This document shows positions 9,743 to 39,057 of a stretch of DNA of 64,000 bases, in pieces. This DNA is from Taibaiella chishuiensis. Lineage in GTDB: Bacteria; Bacteroidota; Bacteroidia; Chitinophagales; Chitinophagaceae. A program made the translations under genes and the position numbers. The notes beneath the pieces were generated by a model. It saw nothing but the letters and a program-made list of their open reading frames with translations. It searched no databases and was not told the origin of the DNA. Position 1 is the stretch's first letter, and every line of letters begins with the position of its first letter. The stretch covers positions 434,001-498,000 of the forward strand of contig NZ_PYGD01000001.1 of assembly GCF_003014535.1 (NCBI RefSeq), written 5' to 3'.

Positions 9743-10078
9743 TTACCTGTTGTTCATTTTACGGCATTCGTCTGCGCAGGCCTTGCAGGCGCGGGCACAT
9801 AACTGGCAATGCTCGTGGTTATGCTTGGCACACTCTGCACCACAGGCTTCGCAAATATCGCCGCAGATCAGGCACATGCGTGTGGCCTGGCTGCTGCCCA
9901 TGCTCATTAACTGGGCGGCGGCATAACAAAGTACCGCACATTCCATATCCAGCCTGATACAGGCCGCCATCATGGCCACATCGTCTTCATAAGTACAGGC
10001 CGTAGCACATTGGTTACAGATAGCTGCGCATTTAAGACAGGCTTCTATACAGTCTTTATATTGATTGTATCCGTTCAT
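9743..10078 (-). CDS. Four-helix-bundle copper-binding protein (DUF326, Csp-like)
   Basis: A 111-residue soluble protein with about 19 cysteines in CxxxC and CxxC spacings that recur along four predicted helices (DCIEACLKCAAIC, MCLICGDIC, HCQLCARACKAC). This is the pattern of copper-storage Csp/DUF326 proteins, which line the core of a four-helix bundle with thiolates that bind Cu(I). No signal peptide is visible, so a cytosolic copper store is expected. It is transcribed alone, leftward. No copper exporter or regulator is found nearby. Confidence 0.85.
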   Translation of the reverse strand: MNGYNQYKDCIEACLKCAAICNQCATACTYEDDVAMMAACIRLDMECAVLCYAAAQLMSMGSSQATRMCLICGDICEACGAECAKHNHEHCQLCARACKACADECRKMNNR

Positions 10079-10395
10079 AAGATTTTGCTTTTATAAAATG
10101 AAACACCAGTGCCGGCTTATGGTTCAGCCGCAAACCGGTATTGCCTTCCGGATAAACTGCAAAGCGGCTACCGGATCGCAAGCCAGGAGGCCGAACGAAC
10201 AGACATCCTTCCGGTTAGCGGCAGCGCCTCTTTAAAATACAAAACAAGGATTGGATAAAATTTACCCTCAATGGGTAAAACAGTAATGGTTAAATGTAAA
10301 TGCAGGACCAGGACAAAAAAGAGCCGGCCCTTCCGGACCGGCCCCTTATACGGATCGCGTACCCTGCGATCCTGTATTGGTTTGTACGCTAACTA
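10079..10395. other. Intergenic stretch between copper-binding gene and secreted array
   Basis: These 317 bases hold the upstream region of the Csp-like gene and, at its right end, the terminator of the secreted array. No additional gene is supported. A short symmetric motif TTTACCC tcaat GGGTAAA occurs at 10261-10279 and could be an operator. Confidence 0.4.
10314..10343 (-). terminator. Terminator of array genes 1 and 2
   Basis: An imperfect hairpin (GCCGGCCC at 10323-10330, GGACCGGC at 10335-10342, one mismatch) is flanked on the plus strand by six A residues, which gives a U-run for leftward transcripts. Confidence 0.6.
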
Positions 10396-10833
10396 TCAGG
10401 GATTGATCTGTACCAGCACATTACCGCCGCCAATAGCCGTCCAACTGGCATTGATCGTATAACCGCCGGCACTAGCCGAGTAGGTGGTACTGGTCGCACA
10501 GCTACCGGGTGCACCTATAGAGCCCGACAGGCCGCTATATACGGGCACAATATTTATTACATCAAAAGCAGAGCCTGTTATCACCGGGTAAGCGGGTATA
10601 TTCCAGGGTATACTCCATTCCAGCCCCCCAGAAGTTACGTTGTTGAAGGCTACGGAAGAGCCTCCGTCTACCGGCAAACGCCAGCTTATATAAGAGCAGG
10701 GAGCGGGCATATTGATATCGTGCGCCCAAAAGGTTATATAAACCGTGTAGGAGGTATTGTTATTGATAAATATGGCGGCTTTGGCGCCGAATGCCGCACC
10801 GACCAGCAGGAGGCTTGCGATTAGTTTTTTCAT
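10396..10833 (-). CDS. Small secreted array protein 1 (subfamily A)
   Basis: A 145-residue exported protein with signal peptide MKKLIASLLLVGAAFGAKA. The mature part starts with strand-rich IFINNNTSYTVYITFWAHD, then has PCSYISWRLPV, a conserved SVAFNNVTS, a variable loop, FDVINIVPV, SCATSTTY and a final GGGNVLVQINP. It carries only two cysteines (Cys46 and Cys112), probably one disulfide after export. It is the closest relative of the next gene, 42 bases upstream and almost surely co-transcribed. I do not recognise the family. The predicted shape is a small beta-sandwich, and function is unknown. Confidence 0.8.
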   Translation of the reverse strand: MKKLIASLLLVGAAFGAKAAIFINNNTSYTVYITFWAHDINMPAPCSYISWRLPVDGGSSVAFNNVTSGGLEWSIPWNIPAYPVITGSAFDVINIVPVYSGLSGSIGAPGSCATSTTYSASAGGYTINASWTAIGGGNVLVQINP

Positions 10834-10875
10834 AAGAGCATGGATGGAGGAAAAAATGGTGTTTGAAAAATCGGA

Positions 10876-11316
10876 TTAGGGGTTGATATCCACCAGTATG
10901 TTACCACCGCCTAAATCGGTCCAGGTAGCATTGATGGTATAACCGCCGCCACTGGTAATATAGGAGGTGCTGGTGGCACAACCACCGGGCTTACCGATAG
11001 TAGCCCAGTACAAACCGCTTACGGTAGGCACAATGTCGATCGCGTCGAAACCGGAACCGGCCAGACCCGGCGTACCGGGCAGGTTCCAGGGAATACCCCA
11101 GGCAAGGCCCGGAGACGTTACATTATTGAAAGCTACCGAAGAACCGCTATTGACAGGCATACGGTTACTGATATACGAACAGGCGCCGGGCAATGCCGCA
11201 TCGTGCGACCAGAAGGTTACATACACAGTGTACGTTGTGCTGTTGTTGACGAATATGGCGGCTTTGGCACTTAAAGCCGCACCGGCCAACAGGAGGCTTG
11301 CGAAGAGTTTTTTCAT
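10876..11316 (-). CDS. Small secreted array protein 2 (subfamily A)
   Basis: A 146-residue paralogue of protein 1: signal peptide MKKLFASLLLAGAALSAKA, then IFVNNSTTYTVYVTFWSHD, ACSYISNRMPV, SVAFNNVTS, FDAIDIVPT, GCATSTSY and GGGNILVDINP. It also has just two cysteines and keeps Tyr at the two places where subfamily B has its extra cysteines. It is the leading gene of the two-gene unit that ends at the 10.3-kb terminator. The whole chain aligns with few gaps to protein 1, so they arose by duplication. Function unknown. Confidence 0.8.
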   Translation of the reverse strand: MKKLFASLLLAGAALSAKAAIFVNNSTTYTVYVTFWSHDAALPGACSYISNRMPVNSGSSVAFNNVTSPGLAWGIPWNLPGTPGLAGSGFDAIDIVPTVSGLYWATIGKPGGCATSTSYITSGGGYTINATWTDLGGGNILVDINP

Positions 11317-11586
11317 AAAAAGTGTTTGGTTAAAACGGGTGTAAAAAATGGTGAATTAAAGAAAACGAAATCGGTAAAACATCTGCTGTTTTATTCCGGG
11401 CAACATCTTGTAAGCATTGTCCCGCAAAGGTTATAGCCTGTAATAAAAAACAGCAGGTTGGCCAGCAAAGCTCATACGGGCCTGCAGCAGGTCTATGCCG
11501 CTACAGCGAAGCCAAGGGTACAGGTGTATACGTCTAGAAAACAAACAACGAAGCGAATGGTCCGTTGCGGAATGCGGGGTTTTACA

Positions 11587-11690
11587 AAGTAAATATCCGC
11601 ATTTATTACAGGCGCCCGGCCCGGTTTTTCAGGAAACGGTAGTTTTTCTTTACCAGCCTTCTTGTTTCCTGCTTTTGTGGAGACATTGGC
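11587..11690. repeat. Array intergenic repeat, copy 1
   Basis: About 100 bases alignable, almost without gaps, to 12449-12545. Shared blocks include GTAAATATCCGCATTTA, CCGG..TTTTCAGGAA, TTTTTCTT..C..GCCTT and CGTGCTTTT-like segments. It lies upstream of array gene 2. Confidence 0.65.
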
Positions 11691-11781
11691 TTTTACTGAA
11701 ACGCAGGTATGGATACTTAAGCCCTGCAATGCTTGCCCCCAAAGAATTATAACGCGTACTACAGGCATCGCGGCATATACA

Positions 11782-11809
11782 AGTAAGCCACCCTGCAGGG
11801 TGGCTTACT
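11782..11809 (-). terminator. Terminator of array gene 3
   Basis: A perfect 12-bp stem (AGTAAGCCACCC / GGGTGGCTTACT, loop TGCA), one of three related hairpins that follow the subfamily B genes at nearly the same distance from their stop codons. This copy lacks a strong U-run. Confidence 0.65.
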
Positions 11810-11846
11810 GATAATGAAGGAAAACCAAATTAACGCAAATTTGAAA

Positions 11847-12302
11847 TTAGTTCAGTTCCAGCAGGATGTTACCGCCACCGAGGTTGGTCCATGATGCATT
11901 GGTAAGAGAGCAGCCGGGATAAGAACCGCTAAACGTAGTGGAAGGTGCACAGGTACCAGTACTACCGATATCGAAGTTGATAGCGCCGAAAAGATCGCCA
12001 TAATAGATCGTTACCGCATCAAAAGCAGAGGCGGTCGTAACCAGGCTGGCGCTGCCGTTTATATACGAGAACCAGCCCGGGCCACCAGGCGTATTTAAAC
12101 TGGTTACATTGTTAAATGCCATAGAAGTGTTTGCCGCAACGGGAAACCTCGAAGAATAATAAGAGCAGATGCCCGGGCTGTTGATATCATGCGCCTTCAA
12201 TACCAGTACGGCCTCGCAGGTGGTATTGTTGTTGATAAAGATAGCGGCGTTGGCGCTAAAGGTTGCTACTGCAAGCACAAGAAATGCAAGTACACTTTTC
12301 AT
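11847..12302 (-). CDS. Small secreted array protein 3 (subfamily B)
   Basis: A 151-residue paralogue with signal peptide MKSVLAFLVLAVATFSANA. The pattern is IFINNNTTCEAVLVLKAHD, ICSYYSSRFPV, SMAFNNVTS, a Gly/Pro/Trp loop, FDAVTIYYGD, GTCAPSTTFSGSYPGC and GGGNILLELN. It has four cysteines: two are shared with subfamily A, and the extra pair replaces the Tyr pair of proteins 1 and 2. It is the most diverged subfamily B member. It has its own upstream region and its own terminator, so it is probably a single-gene transcript. Function unknown. Confidence 0.8.
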   Translation of the reverse strand: MKSVLAFLVLAVATFSANAAIFINNNTTCEAVLVLKAHDINSPGICSYYSSRFPVAANTSMAFNNVTSLNTPGGPGWFSYINGSASLVTTASAFDAVTIYYGDLFGAINFDIGSTGTCAPSTTFSGSYPGCSLTNASWTNLGGGNILLELN

Positions 12303-12448
12303 CTGGATGCGTGTTTTAAGAGTTAATGTTTGGGTTAAAAAAAGAAGTTGAATGATATATAAAGAACAGCAACGAAACAGGCTACAACAGGTATGCTGCG
12401 GAACAGGAACAACGGGGCTATTGCCCCTTGCAGCATGCGCACCTTATA

Positions 12449-12545
12449 AGGTAAATATCCGCATTTAGCCCCGATGCTTTGCCGGGATTTTCAGGAAGCA
12501 CCGGTTTTTCTTCACAAGCCTTATCGTATCGTGCTTTTACTCATA
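12449..12545. repeat. Array intergenic repeat, copy 2
   Basis: Homologous to 11587-11690; it lies about 150-245 bases upstream of array gene 3. Confidence 0.65.
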
Positions 12546-12635
12546 CAAGGCGTTCCGGCATAGCGTTATGCATGGATAAACGTTCTCTGTATCGCTTACC
12601 GGTAAAGGATTCTGGCGTGTATTGGCTTTGGTATA

Positions 12636-12664
12636 AAAGTAAGCCACCCGGAGGGGTGGCCTAC
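12636..12664 (-). terminator. Terminator of array gene 4
   Basis: Hairpin with arms GTAAGCCACCC and GGGTGGCCTAC (one G-T type mismatch), with an AAAA run on the plus strand giving U residues to the leftward transcript. Sequence closely matches the hairpin at 13353-13375. Confidence 0.7.
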
Positions 12665-12704
12665 CTGGTAATGAAGGAAAAACCAAATTAACGCAAATTT
12701 GAAA

Positions 12705-13163
12705 TTAGTTCAGATCCAGCAGTATATTACCGCCGCCAAGTGGTGTCCAGGTTGCATTGGTAAAAGAGCAGCCCGGGAAAGAACCGGTGAAAGAACCAAC
12801 GGGAGTGCAGGTACCTGCGCCGCCGATATTGAAGGTAATAGCGCCGCCGAGGTTACCATAATATACCGTTACTGCATCCCAGCCGGAACCGGCAGTTACC
12901 AGGGTAGCAGTACCGCCGCCTACAGTCGGGTACCAGCCCGGGCCACCAGGGGAGTTTACATTGGTTACATTGTTGAATGCCATAGAAGTGTTGCCGGCAA
13001 CAGGAAACCTTGTGGAATAATAAGCACAGCTGCCAGGGTTGTTGGCATCATGCGCTTTCAGTACCAGTACTGCTTCGCAGTTGGTATTGTTGTTGATAAA
13101 CAGGGCAGCGTTAGCGCTGAAACCTGCTACGGTAAGCGCCAGGAAGGTAAGTACACTTTTCAT
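12705..13163 (-). CDS. Small secreted array protein 4 (subfamily B)
   Basis: A 152-residue paralogue with signal peptide MKSVLTFLALTVAGFSANA. It shows FINNNTNCEAVLVLKAHD, SCAYYSTRFPV, SMAFNNVTN, a Gly-rich loop with GPGWYPTVGGG, WDAVTVYYGN, GTCTPVGSFTGSFPGC and GGGNILLDLN, with four cysteines. The frame is open further upstream to 13310. I chose the internal ATG because it starts the same signal peptide as protein 5 and follows the same upstream sequence (AACTCCGATTGAG). It is nearly identical to protein 5 outside the central loop, so the duplication is recent. Function unknown. Confidence 0.8.
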   Translation of the reverse strand: MKSVLTFLALTVAGFSANAALFINNNTNCEAVLVLKAHDANNPGSCAYYSTRFPVAGNTSMAFNNVTNVNSPGGPGWYPTVGGGTATLVTAGSGWDAVTVYYGNLGGAITFNIGGAGTCTPVGSFTGSFPGCSFTNATWTPLGGGNILLDLN

Positions 13164-13352
13164 CTCAATCGGAGTTTTAGAAGTTAATGTTGGGGTTAAA
13201 AAGAAATTGAATGGCACATAGAGCACAGCAACGAAGCAGGACAGCATCGGCAGACTGCCGGAAAACAACAGAGTTATGCCCCTTGCTCCCTGCAGGCTCT
13301 TGTAACGCAACGAACCGGTGGCTTATTCCGGTGTATTACCGGTTACATAAAA

Positions 13353-13375
13353 TAAGCCACCCGGAGGGGTGGCCT
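13353..13375 (-). terminator. Terminator of array gene 5
   Basis: TAAGCCACCC-GGAG-GGGTGGCCTA hairpin preceded on the plus strand by ATAAAA. It is a near copy of the gene 4 terminator and is followed by the same 3' untranslated segment (AACCAAATTAACGCAAA). Confidence 0.7.
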
Positions 13376-13418
13376 ACCTGATGATGAGGGATAAACCAAA
13401 TTAACGCAAAATTTGAAA

Positions 13419-13871
13419 TTAGTTCAGGTCCAGCAGTACATTACCGCCACCAAGCGGTGTCCAGGTTGCATTGGTAAAAGAGCAGCCGGGATAAGAACCG
13501 CTGAAAGAACCAACGGGTGTGCAGGTGCCCGCACCACCGATGTTGAAGGTAAGGCCGCCCCCATAATACACGGTCACTGCGTCCCAACCGGAACCTGCAG
13601 CGATCATGGTAGCACCGCCGCTACCGCCTACAGTCTGGTACCAACCAGGACCCGCAGGATAGTTTACATTGGTTACATTATTATACGCCACAGACGTGTT
13701 TGCTGCCACAGTAAACCGTGTGGAATAATAAGAGCAACTGCCAGGGATATTCGCATCATGCGCCCTTAATACCAGTACCGCCTGGCAATTGGTATTGTTA
13801 TTGATAAACAGGGCGGCGTTAGCGCTGAAACCAGCTACAGTAAGGGCAAGGAATGTAAGTACACTTTTCAT
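13419..13871 (-). CDS. Small secreted array protein 5 (subfamily B)
   Basis: A 150-residue paralogue whose first 28 residues are identical to protein 4 (signal peptide MKSVLTFLALTVAGFSANA). Its four cysteines are at residues 29, 46, 117 and 130. Conserved blocks are SCSYYSTRFTV, SVAYNNVTN, WDAVTVYYGGG, GTCTPVGSFSGSYPGC and GGGNVLLDLN. The central loop is two residues shorter overall than in protein 4, with several changes (GPGWYQTVGGSGG). It is the gene farthest upstream in the array, next to the two-component system. Function unknown; beta-sandwich fold inferred. Confidence 0.8.
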   Translation of the reverse strand: MKSVLTFLALTVAGFSANAALFINNNTNCQAVLVLRAHDANIPGSCSYYSTRFTVAANTSVAYNNVTNVNYPAGPGWYQTVGGSGGATMIAAGSGWDAVTVYYGGGLTFNIGGAGTCTPVGSFSGSYPGCSFTNATWTPLGGGNVLLDLN

Positions 13872-36127: not shown

Positions 36128-37936
36128 CTATTTTAAATGCTTGATATTGATAACTTCCTGCTTGGTAAGGAAACGCCATTTGCCGCGCAGGACGTGTTTT
36201 TTGGTCAATCCCGCATACATAACACGGTCCAGTTTAACCACTTCGTAGCCCAGCGATTCGAAGATACGGCGCACGATACGGTTTTTGCCGCTGTGGATCT
36301 CCATACCGACCTCGTTCTTGGTCTCGAGGTATTCCAGCTCGTCCACTTTAGCTTGCCCGTCTTCCAGGATCACACCTTCCAGGATCTTGTCAAAGTCTGC
36401 TTTAGACAGGTTTTTGTCGAGGGTGGCTTTGTACACCTTGCGCACTTCATATTTAGGATGAGCCAGTTTCTGTGCCAGTTCGCCATCATTGGTCAGCAGC
36501 AGCAGACCGGTTGTATTGCGATCGAGCCTGCCCACCGGGAATACGCGCTCTTCGATATGGTTCTCGAGCATCTCCATTACCGTACGCCTTCCTTTCGGAT
36601 CGTCGGTGGTCGTGATAAAGCCTTTGGGCTTATTCATCAGGATATAGACCAGGTTTTTCTGAACCACTAACTGTTTGCCGTTCAGTGCAATAATATCTTC
36701 GAGGGTTACTTTAAAGCCGGGTTCGGTTATCAGTTCGCCATTTACCGTTACTTTACCTTCTTTAATCAGGGTTACGGCATCTCTGCGGCTGCATACATCG
36801 CAATGTGCAATGTATTTGTTCAGCGGCATGGGTTTGCTGGCATCCAGATTTTCGGGAGCCGTCTGGTTGGCCTCGTCGTGGTTGCCTTCCGACCAGGTTG
36901 CATAAGCTTTCTCCTGTTCTTTTTCGTTGTCGAAATGCTTTTTGAACCTGGATTTAGGTTCGCGCGGTTCGTCTTTATCCCGCTTCTTCGGTTTGATATC
37001 GCTCTTGCCAAATACGCGTTCCACCGGCTCATCCGACCATTTGTCCAGCTCCCTGGAGAACGTGATCTCGTCGCCCTGGCTTTCCTGCTCGCGTTTCTGC
37101 TGCATTTTGCGCTGGTGCTGGATCAGCTCTTCGTCATCCAGTTTGCCAAAGGTATTTTTATAACGGTCGACAGGTTTGTCCTCTTTCTTTTTAAAATCGC
37201 GGTCGCCTCTGTCCTCGAAAGATTTTTTGAAGGGTTTATCCCCTTTATCAAAAGATTTTTTAAAAGGGCGGTCTTCTTTATCTCCGAACGACTTTTTAAA
37301 GGGACGGTCTTCGTGGTTACCAAATGACTTGCGGAAAGGACGGTCTTCCTTGCCTTCAAACGATTTCCGGAAAGGACGCTCTTCTTTGTTGTCAAATGAT
37401 TTTTTGAAAGGACGGTCTTCTCTGTTGTCAAACGACTTCTTGAAAGGGCGGTCTTCTTTATTATCAAAAGATTTGCGGAAAGGGCGGTCTTCTTTGTTGT
37501 CAAACGACTTTTTAAAAGGACGCTCTTCTTTATTATCGAAAGATTTACGGAAAGGGCGGTCTTCTTTGTTGTCAAATGACTTTTTAAAAGGACGCTCTTC
37601 TTTATTATCGAAAGATTTACGGAAAGGGCGGTCTTCCTTGCCTTCAAATGATTTTTTAAAAGGGCGGTCGCCTTTGTCGTCGAATTTCTTTTTGAAGGGA
37701 CGATCCTCATCGTGGCGGAACGGCTTTTTAAACGGCCGGTCTTCCGGCTTGCCGGACGCCTTACGGAAAGGGCGGTCTTCGTCGTTACCAAACTGCTTCC
37801 GGAAAGGCTTATCATCCTTATCGCCGGTTTTCTGCCTGAAAGGCCGGTCTTCTTTCCTGTCTGAAGATTTCCTGTAAGGCGCATCATCATTGTTGCCGAA
37901 AGCCTTTTTACCGGAATGGAATGGTTTCTTGTGCAT
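36128..37936 (-). CDS. RluB/RsuA-family pseudouridine synthase with repeat extension
   Basis: A 602-residue protein. The C-terminal 240 residues are a normal rRNA pseudouridine synthase: S4 domain (PLNKYIAHCDVCSRRDAVTLIKEGKVTVNG), then VYILMNKPKGFITT and the catalytic GRLDRNTTGLLLL with Asp472, ending MEIHSGKNRIVRRIFESLGYEV. Residues about 20-245 hold some 18 tandem units of about 12 residues with consensus [KE][ED]RPF[KR]KSFDNK, highly charged and surely disordered. A charged linker joins the parts. ATG 37936 is preferred over the longer frame to 38053, which reads poorly and would nearly reach rlmN. The extension probably binds RNA or ribosomes; this is inference. Confidence 0.88.
   Translation of the reverse strand: MHKKPFHSGKKAFGNNDDAPYRKSSDRKEDRPFRQKTGDKDDKPFRKQFGNDEDRPFRKASGKPEDRPFKKPFRHDEDRPFKKKFDDKGDRPFKKSFEGKEDRPFRKSFDNKEERPFKKSFDNKEDRPFRKSFDNKEERPFKKSFDNKEDRPFRKSFDNKEDRPFKKSFDNREDRPFKKSFDNKEERPFRKSFEGKEDRPFRKSFGNHEDRPFKKSFGDKEDRPFKKSFDKGDKPFKKSFEDRGDRDFKKKEDKPVDRYKNTFGKLDDEELIQHQRKMQQKREQESQGDEITFSRELDKWSDEPVERVFGKSDIKPKKRDKDEPREPKSRFKKHFDNEKEQEKAYATWSEGNHDEANQTAPENLDASKPMPLNKYIAHCDVCSRRDAVTLIKEGKVTVNGELITEPGFKVTLEDIIALNGKQLVVQKNLVYILMNKPKGFITTTDDPKGRRTVMEMLENHIEERVFPVGRLDRNTTGLLLLTNDGELAQKLAHPKYEVRKVYKATLDKNLSKADFDKILEGVILEDGQAKVDELEYLETKNEVGMEIHSGKNRIVRRIFESLGYEVVKLDRVMYAGLTKKHVLRGKWRFLTKQEVINIKHLK
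37200..37850. repeat. 36-bp coding tandem repeat
   Basis: The DNA behind the repeat extension: about 18 units near 36 bases long. The central units (about 37370-37640) are almost identical at DNA level in alternating pairs. One contains AAAGATTTACGGAAAGGGCG and the other ACTTTTTAAAAGGACGCTC. This points to recent unit exchange or slippage. Confidence 0.85.
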
Positions 37937-38016
37937 CAGTATATTAATAAAATAGGTTGTGGAATAAATTGAAAAAAAGGCCGGCAATAGCTGCGGCCTG
38001 CAGGATCGCTCCTGTA

Positions 38017-39057
38017 TTATGCTGTGCGGGTAACATTGGCCAGCTGGCCGCATGCCGCATCGATATCTTTACCGCGGCTCCGGCGCAATCTCGCATTCAC
38101 ACGATTGGCAGCGAGGTATTCCATAAACTGGTCCACCACGTTTTCTTCCGGCTTTTCGAAGTCGGCATCATCGATAGCATTATATTCGATGATATTGACC
38201 AGGTCGGCCGGTACCTGGCGGTATATTTTCACCAGTTCTTCGGCGTCCTTGCGGCTGTCATTAAAATTCTTGAAGAGGATGTATTCGAAGGTGATCTCGT
38301 TGCCGGTTTTCTGGTAGAAGTAAAGCAGCGATTCGATCAGCGTCTTGAGGTTATTGCTTTCGTTGATGGGCATAATCTCGTTACGCTTCTGGTCGTTGGC
38401 CGCATGCAGCGACAGTGCCAGTTTGAACCGTACTTCATCGTCGCCCAGCTGTTTGATCATTTTAGCCACCCCTGCGGTAGACAGGGTAATACGGCGCGGG
38501 CTCATGCCCAGTCCCTCGGGCGAGGTAATGCGCTCGATGGCTTTGAGTACGTTTTTATAATTGAGCAGGGGTTCGCCCATACCCATAAAAACGATATTGC
38601 TGAGATGCCGGCCGAAGTGGGTTTCGGCCTGCTGGTTGATCAGGGTTACTTCATCTACGATTTCGTCGAACTCCAGGTTACGTGCACGGGGCAGGTAACC
38701 GGTAGCGCAGAATTTGCAGCTGAGGCTACAACCCACCTGCGAGGATACACAAGCGGTCATGCGCTTTTCGGTAGGGATCAGCACCCCTTCGATAAAGCGG
38801 TTATCATGCAGTTTCAGCCGGCTTTTAATGGTACCGTCGTTACTGAACTGGCTGTGGTCGATCGTGACTTTGGGAATCTGGTAAACTTCGAGCAGTTGCT
38901 CGCGAAGTTTTTTGGAGAGGTTGCTCATCTCATCGATCGAGCTGGCGTGCTTCTTCCAGATCCAGTCGTGGATCTGTGCGGCACGGAATTTGGGTTCGCC
39001 CAATTCTTTCATCAACTGTTCTATCTCCGCTAGAGGGGCATGTCTCAGATTTTTCAT
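38017..39057 (-). CDS. rlmN: Dual-specificity RNA methyltransferase RlmN (radical SAM)
   Basis: A 346-residue enzyme that makes C2-methyladenosine in 23S rRNA and tRNAs. The radical-SAM 4Fe-4S motif is GCSLSCKFCATG (Cys110, 114, 117). Other landmarks are FIEGVLIP, MGMGEPLLNYKNVLKAI, RRITLSTAGVAKMI and LALSLHAANDQKRNEIMPIN. The N-terminal helical domain starts PKFRAAQIHDWIWKK. The length is typical. A TACCTTTG box at 39075-39082 lies just upstream. Confidence 0.95.
   Translation of the reverse strand: MKNLRHAPLAEIEQLMKELGEPKFRAAQIHDWIWKKHASSIDEMSNLSKKLREQLLEVYQIPKVTIDHSQFSNDGTIKSRLKLHDNRFIEGVLIPTEKRMTACVSSQVGCSLSCKFCATGYLPRARNLEFDEIVDEVTLINQQAETHFGRHLSNIVFMGMGEPLLNYKNVLKAIERITSPEGLGMSPRRITLSTAGVAKMIKQLGDDEVRFKLALSLHAANDQKRNEIMPINESNNLKTLIESLLYFYQKTGNEITFEYILFKNFNDSRKDAEELVKIYRQVPADLVNIIEYNAIDDADFEKPEENVVDQFMEYLAANRVNARLRRSRGKDIDAACGQLANVTRTA

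What the first reader, a model, noticed from the sequence alone, without database searches (positions are those of the whole stretch)
10396..13871. Tandem array of five small secreted paralogues of unknown function
Five genes in a row encode 145-152-residue exported proteins with the same architecture: signal peptide, NNxT...AHD strand block, CSY, AFNNVT, C-terminal GGGNxLxxLN. They form two subfamilies. The order, private terminators and duplicated flanks show repeated local duplication. I know no described family with this pattern. Amplified secreted beta-proteins often serve as adhesins, toxins, matrix components or phage-exposed decoys.
Basis: partly seen in the sequence, partly recalled or inferred. 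Interest (0 to 1): 0.82.

Follow-up and report, generated by a model that had tools for sequence, protein, structure and literature searches.

The report
Amplified exported beta-sandwich proteins in Taibaiella
A bacterium related to Taibaiella carries five neighbouring copies of a small exported protein from a larger, apparently undescribed family; its predicted shape resembles proteins that bind cell membranes, but what it does is not known.

Summary
The array is real: five minus-strand genes (W1-W5, 10396-13871) encode 145-152-residue paralogues with signal peptides. The genome holds 14 close copies at five places; T. koreensis and T. helva hold 14 each in one array; a fourth genome of the genus has none. 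This genome's 14 copies form one side of a well-supported branch, so amplification was lineage-specific. Seven ortholog pairs have dN/dS 0.09-0.27: copies are kept, not hypervariable. The best curated-family match is E 3e-4, below its cut-off. Profile comparison joins them to two further families of small exported proteins in the genome, at least 24 genes. Models of both subfamilies are confident all-beta folds; nearest solved structures are aegerolysins, the Vps13 adaptor-binding domain and NttC, all with Z under 8. Aegerolysin membership by sequence is not met; no MACPF partner over cut-off. Best reading: exported, disulfide-pinned beta-sandwich binding modules kept as a set of specificities; ligand and release beyond the periplasm are inferred.

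The parts
13419..13871 (-). W1, exported paralogue, 150 aa, four-Cys subfamily; structure predicted
12705..13163 (-). W2, exported paralogue, 152 aa, four-Cys subfamily (the ORF list starts it upstream at a TTG; the ATG at 13163 fits the family)
11847..12302 (-). W3, exported paralogue, 151 aa, four-Cys subfamily
10876..11316 (-). W4, exported paralogue, 146 aa, two-Cys subfamily; structure predicted
10396..10833 (-). W5, exported paralogue, 145 aa, two-Cys subfamily, 42 bp after W4
13345..13377 (-). terminator-like hairpin after W1
   Evidence: (13335-13400, z -2.9)
12632..12664 (-). terminator-like hairpin after W2
   Evidence: (12622-12690, z -4.2)
11776..11808 (-). terminator-like hairpin after W3
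   Evidence: (11766-11830, z -4.0)
10318..10347 (-). terminator-like hairpin with T tail after W5
   Evidence: (10305-10360, z -2.1)

Best explanation
W1-W5 are members of an apparently undescribed family of single-domain exported binding proteins of the Chitinophagaceae. Each chain is sent through the inner membrane by a Sec signal peptide, folds into a beta-sandwich pinned by up to two disulfides, and acts outside the inner membrane, most likely at or beyond the cell surface, by binding a surface ligand (a lipid head group or a glycan) in the manner of aegerolysin- and actinoporin-type beta-sandwiches. Different paralogues bind different ligands, so each lineage keeps its own set. Shown: paralogy, confident all-beta models, lineage-specific amplification, purifying selection. 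Read from sequence by eye: signal peptides. Inferred: disulfide pairing (from cysteine co-loss), release beyond the periplasm (from charge-poor composition), ligand binding and its division among paralogues (from fold likeness and kept copies).
For: AF2 models: W1 pLDDT 87.4, pTM 0.81; W4 85.2, 0.79. Aegerolysins (ostreolysin A, pleurotolysin A) are top or tied for the top for both: Z 7.2 for W1 (98-99 residues, 3.7-3.8 A), Z 7.6-7.7 for W4 (95-99 residues, 3.7-3.9 A); then NttC 6.4 and 7.0, Cry34Ab1 6.3 and 6.4, RahU 6.1 and 6.3. C46 and C117 are present in 42 of 42 members; C29 and C130 are missing together in exactly 3 of 42 (W4, W5, L037:7979-8419), and the third family has just that pair as invariant cysteines, 7 of 7. 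Seven in-order T. koreensis/T. helva ortholog pairs have dN/dS 0.09-0.27. Mature chains hold 1.9% Lys+Glu on average against 12.0% in 42 other window genes.
Against: No fold match reaches Foldseek E 0.001 or Z 8, a level that the tool says may be only a common arrangement; the Vps13 domain matches as well as the aegerolysins, and pilins, cytolysin domain 4, a GH64 glucanase and thaumatins follow at Z 4.5-5.8. hhalign against a true bacterial aegerolysin gives probability 0.4% and 0.5%. I saw no recurring neighbour gene and no T9SS tail, so release beyond the outer membrane is not shown. Synthesis cost per residue is only slightly lower than in other genes (22.5 against 23.6), so the composition argument is weak. 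dS near or above 1 makes the selection estimates rough.
Confidence: 0.4

Rival explanations
1. They are structural parts of the cell surface, a biofilm matrix or an adhesion layer, with paralogues as variants of a building block.
For: Charge-poor mature chains rich in Asn, Thr, Ser and Gly (41.9% against 22.1%); pilin and adhesin domains are among the fold matches at Z about 5; a relative with a lipoprotein-type leader exists (L067:1477-1947), as for a surface-anchored version.
Against: Fold matches to pilins are weaker than to aegerolysins; no sorting or polymerisation motif was noticed; 14 well separated paralogues with old orthologs are more than a bulk coat seems to need.
Confidence: 0.25
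2. They are lytic or inhibitory exoproteins aimed at competing microbes or grazing protists.
For: Nearest folds include membrane-binding and pore-forming proteins; mutants lacking NttC, another near fold, are impaired in some amoebae (PMC7325957, passages).
Against: MACPF partner gene over the cut-off in 0 of 4 genomes; no immunity-like neighbour noticed; purifying selection rather than an arms race.
Confidence: 0.12
3. They are periplasmic ligand-binding or enzyme-inhibiting proteins, thaumatin-like in build.
For: Signal peptide without any further sorting signal; thaumatins rank high for W4 in Foldseek (E 0.03) and the thaumatin-like xylanase inhibitor is at Z 5.0 and 5.1.
Against: No thaumatin among the 10 Pfam families matched by any of 42 members at E up to 1; charge-poor composition suggests secretion.
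Confidence: 0.1
4. They are phage-exposed decoys or a phase-variable antigen set.
Against: dN/dS 0.09-0.27 in seven ortholog pairs; one-to-one orthologs kept in order between two species; no viral relatives found; no PADLOC model for the five.
Confidence: 0.04

Closest known systems
Aegerolysins (Pfam PF06355: ostreolysin A, pleurotolysin A, RahU)
   Same: Small single-domain beta-sandwich of like size; top or tied top fold match for both models.
   Different: No sequence match; the present proteins have signal peptides and conserved cysteines; no MACPF partner gene over the cut-off.
Vps13 adaptor-binding domain (PDB 7u8t)
   Same: Beta-sandwich repeat unit, Z 7.6 and 7.3, best Foldseek E 0.02 and 0.0074.
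   Different: Part of a large eukaryotic protein; no sequence link seen.
Legionella NttC (PDB 6sjt)
   Same: Small exported immunoglobulin-like beta-sandwich of unknown ligand, Z 6.4 and 7.0; no homologue known outside its genus (PMC7325957, passages).
   Different: No sequence link; its one disulfide is elsewhere (C46-C55, same passages).
Actinoporins, cytolysin domain 4, Nakanori
   Same: Same general beta-sandwich arrangement, Z 4.6-6.2.
   Different: Weaker matches; no sequence link.
Thaumatin-like proteins (Pfam PF00314)
   Same: Beta-sandwich core; Z 4.5-5.2.
   Different: No sequence match; at most two inferred disulfides against eight in thaumatin (recalled).
DUF6759 (Pfam PF20545)
   Same: Weak local match to residues 18-68 of a T. 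koreensis member, 21.3 bits, E 3e-4.
   Different: Below the Pfam cut-off of 27 bits; only 3 of 42 members match at E up to 1.

Membership tests
Aegerolysin (PF06355) | Sequence match to the family model | tested here: not met
   Not among the 10 Pfam families matched by any of 42 members at E up to 1; 0 of 4 genus genomes over the cut-off; hhalign of A1 and A3 with a true bacterial aegerolysin: probability 0.4% and 0.5%.
Aegerolysin (PF06355) | Aegerolysin beta-sandwich fold | tested here: inconclusive
   Top or tied top fold match, but Z 7.2-7.7, under 8.
Aegerolysin (PF06355) | MACPF partner gene (two-component members only) | tested here: not met
   0 of 4 genus genomes over the PF01823 cut-off; best E 0.27.
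Actinoporins | Fold | tested here: inconclusive
   Z 4.6-5.7 among the rows shown.
Thaumatin (PF00314) | Sequence match to the family model | tested here: not met
   Not among the 10 Pfam families matched by any of 42 members at E up to 1. The phylum search rang nowhere, controls included, and decides nothing.
Thaumatin (PF00314) | Fold | tested here: inconclusive
   Z 4.5-5.2; Foldseek E 0.03 for W4.
DUF6759 (PF20545) | Score over the Pfam cut-off | tested here: not met
   Best 21.3 bits against 27.
Type IX secretion cargo | C-terminal sorting domain | tested here: not met
   No such family among the 10 Pfam families matched by any of 42 members; the last strand of the domain ends at or next to the last residue in both models.
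Sec-exported protein | N-terminal signal peptide | tested here: met
   Read by eye: short basic start, hydrophobic stretch, A-x-A then A in W1-W5; A19 invariant in 42. No dedicated predictor was run.
Sec-exported protein | Released beyond the outer membrane | not testable with these tools
   Needs fractionation of cells.

The most novel reading that the evidence does not exclude
An undescribed superfamily of exported, disulfide-pinned, aegerolysin-like lipid- or glycan-binding domains in the Chitinophagaceae, amplified independently in single lineages into sets of 14 close and at least 24 total paralogues, working without a MACPF partner as a diversified surface-recognition toolkit.
Probability: 0.27. 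Interest if true: 0.65.

Novelty: new variant of a known kind. Interest (0 to 1): 0.45.

Why it matters
Lineage-specific sets of small secreted proteins are common in bacteria (recalled) but seldom offer a structural handle. Here one superfamily links three sequence-orphan groups, gives a confident fold, a testable disulfide scheme and ortholog pairs kept under selection. If the aegerolysin likeness reflects function, it would add a Sec-exported branch without MACPF partners to a class of membrane-binding domains, in environmental bacteria whose dealings with fungi, protists and other bacteria are little known.

Tried and rejected
Membership in aegerolysin, thaumatin, DUF6759 or a T9SS cargo family: see Membership tests. 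PF00314 in 375 genomes rang nowhere, controls included, so it shows nothing. PF06355 in 375 genomes of the phylum gave one match over the cut-off and one weak one; the first served as yardstick. Sequence searches of solved structures with A1 and A3 gave best E 0.026 and 0.19, by eye chance hits. The viral structure library gave nothing at E 0.001.

Bacteroidota-type promoter (-33 TTG, -7 TAnnTTTG, motif recalled) upstream of 42 genes: 2 of 42 with a score of 6 or more against a shuffled mean of 4.7; no signal.

Place: in T. koreensis and T. helva the histidine-kinase/LytTR pair that precedes the window array (47% identical kinase) has no array beside it. The aldolase gene on the other side has no match at E 1e-30 in the three other genomes. 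A gene recurring beside all arrays was looked for by eye and not seen; the T. koreensis and T. helva arrays share a downstream OMP_b-brl_3 gene (83% identical), whose best relatives in the window genome are 27-28% identical and not beside the close family.

The A3 search over the phylum rang in 15 of 395 genomes. Of its 18 loci outside the own genome I read 11: L074 and L075 look like members, the other nine look unrelated, mostly matched through the signal peptide. So overstates the spread. My hhalign yardstick run used a wrong reading frame of the aegerolysin locus and was replaced. The 16 'unrelated' chains included two family members by mistake (L037), which scored 99.9%; the other 14, some of them not real genes, scored 0.5% or less.

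The tree warns that long branches meet (K9/H9 with K10/H10) and that K9 has an unlike composition; this does not touch the split between the species sets.
Full report
Observation. The five ORFs exist at the stated places, on the minus strand, in the order W1 (13419-13871) to W5 (10396-10833) in the direction of transcription. W2 finds the other four with E 1.5e-80 to 4.1e-22. Hairpins follow W1, W2, W3 and W5; W4 and W5 are 42 bp apart.

Where it lies. The window is on a 1.78-Mb contig of a 5.84-Mb genome.

Copies. W2 as a query finds 14 members in the own genome at E 3e-15 or better, at five places: five in the window, four at C1:1.56 Mb, two on C3, one on C2, two on C10; two further hits (E 0.18, 0.30) were not counted. 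T. koreensis and T. helva have 14 each, in one array with gaps of 19-168 and 5-144 bp. Of the 59 genomes the other 56, the fourth genome of the genus among them, have none at E 0.001. With the profile A1, 25 of 294 family genomes ring at E 0.001 (16 of 101 genera); outside the genus the best are 1.1e-22 and 1.8e-15 (both G266), then 2.6e-13; at most 13 candidates per genome were scored, so copy counts there are lower bounds. The scan of GTDB genomes found 2 loci, both Taibaiella, from 22 pattern matches; it rests on one short peptide pattern, so it sees close relatives only.

History. In a maximum-likelihood tree of 42 members the 14 of this genome form one side of a branch with support 100/99; the other two species intermix, with one-to-one pairs K1/H1 and K9-K14/H9-H14 in the same order and turnover between (K = T. 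koreensis, H = T. helva). So the family was amplified separately at least once; the root is not known. NG86 dN/dS for the seven in-order pairs is 0.09-0.27 with dS 0.76-1.43; W1/W2 0.10, W2/W3 0.22, W4/W5 0.18. dS near or above 1 is rough, but purifying selection is clear. In T. koreensis and T. helva the kinase/regulator pair that precedes the window array stands without an array.

Wider family. Relatives in other Chitinophagaceae include tandem groups (L061, L062, L045) and one with a lipoprotein-type leader and none of the four cysteines (L067). In the own genome a second group (three genes: L039:5992-6432, L116:5746-6204, L117:5612-6064) and a third (seven genes: L037:4528-4896, L039:6624-7010, three in L114, two in L118) have the same build. 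hhalign of mature parts, with E-values for a single comparison: family 1 with 2, probability 97.2%, E 4.6e-11, 111 columns; family 1 with 3, 81.2%, E 1.2e-5, 114 columns; family 2 with 3, 91.5% but over 48 columns only. Thirty column-shuffled versions of families 2 and 3 reach at most 1.1% and 0.8% against family 1, reversed ones 0.1% and 0.2%. The cluster at C1:1.56 Mb (L039) holds one gene of family 2, one of family 3 and four of family 1 in a row on one strand. That makes at least 24 genes; the count is not exhaustive.

Structure. AlphaFold2 with 33 sequences gives W1 pLDDT 87.4, pTM 0.81 and W4 85.2, 0.79; mature parts are mostly above 90 and almost wholly beta. Foldseek finds nothing at E 0.001 in the PDB (best 0.02 and 0.0074, Vps13 adaptor-binding domain). 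VIA-align 2 gives for W1 the Vps13 domain 7.6, ostreolysin A and pleurotolysin A 7.2, NttC 6.4, Cry34Ab1 6.3, RahU 6.1; for W4 ostreolysin A and pleurotolysin A 7.6-7.7, Vps13 7.3, NttC 7.0, Cry34Ab1 6.4, RahU 6.3; actinoporins, cytolysin domain 4, pilins, a GH64 glucanase (5.8, W4 only) and thaumatins follow at 4.5-5.8. Both subfamilies lead to the same neighbourhood, but all Z are under 8, where a common arrangement is enough. A review states that aegerolysin models share an actinoporin-like beta-sandwich (PMC9505663, passages).

Cysteines. C46 and C117 are present in 42 of 42. C29 and C130 are lost, both to Tyr, in W4, W5 and L037:7979-8419 only; these three form a clade, so this is one event. 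Family 3 has two invariant cysteines, aligned with C29 and C130, in 7 of 7; three of its chains have one or two more.

Composition. From residue 20 on, 42 members hold 1.9% Lys+Glu (0-13.7) against 12.0% (4.9-24.8) in 42 other window genes, and 41.9% Asn+Thr+Ser+Gly against 22.1%; the comparison set is full-length and mostly not secreted, and the cost per residue differs little (22.5 against 23.6, cost table recalled). This fits an exported protein, not more.

Function. Over Pfam and NCBIfam the best match of any of 42 members is DUF6759, E 3e-4 and 21.3 bits against a cut-off of 27. For the five window proteins PHROGs gives nothing below E 0.05 and PADLOC nothing at E 0.1; the viral scan with A1 and tblastn of W2 against phages and plasmids found no relative. 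Aegerolysin membership fails by sequence, and no MACPF gene over the cut-off was found in 4 genomes. Best reading: exported beta-sandwich binding modules, a set of ligands per lineage, probability 0.4; surface or matrix building blocks 0.25; other rivals lower.

Literature. Searches for 'DUF6759', for Chitinophagaceae with 'small secreted proteins' and 'tandem', for 'lineage-specific expansion' with Chitinophaga, and for Bacteroidota with beta-sandwich, tandem, paralogs and secreted returned no paper. Taibaiella with 'secreted' returned 16, of which 15 were listed; by title and abstract start none concerns this. 'Taibaiella koreensis' returned 2 listings, by title and abstract start neither about this. 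Aegerolysin with Bacteroidetes returned 5 listings. The library lacks most subscription journals. Only passages of PMC9505663, PMC7325957 and PMC7005277 (a reference line) were read; the other papers were seen as listings.

Noticed in passing
window 36128-38053 (-): A gene that looks by eye like a pseudouridine synthase carries a long N-terminal extension of nearly twenty imperfect DNKEDRPFKKSF-type repeats.
   Followed up: no
L069:17140-19545 and L070:14066-16471: An OMP_b-brl_3 outer-membrane barrel gene follows both 14-gene arrays on the same strand after 209 and 100 bp. A gene 27% identical to it lies beside the third-family array in L114, on the opposite strand.
   Followed up: partly
L114:7853-9441 (-): Tandem array of three third-family small exported proteins in the same genome.
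   Followed up: partly
L120:5951-6421 (-), same gene as L067:1477-1947: A relative of the family with a lipoprotein-type leader and none of the four cysteines: possibly a surface-anchored version.
   Followed up: partly
window 9743-10078 (-): A small Cys-rich protein with DUF326 is the next gene downstream of the array.
   Followed up: no
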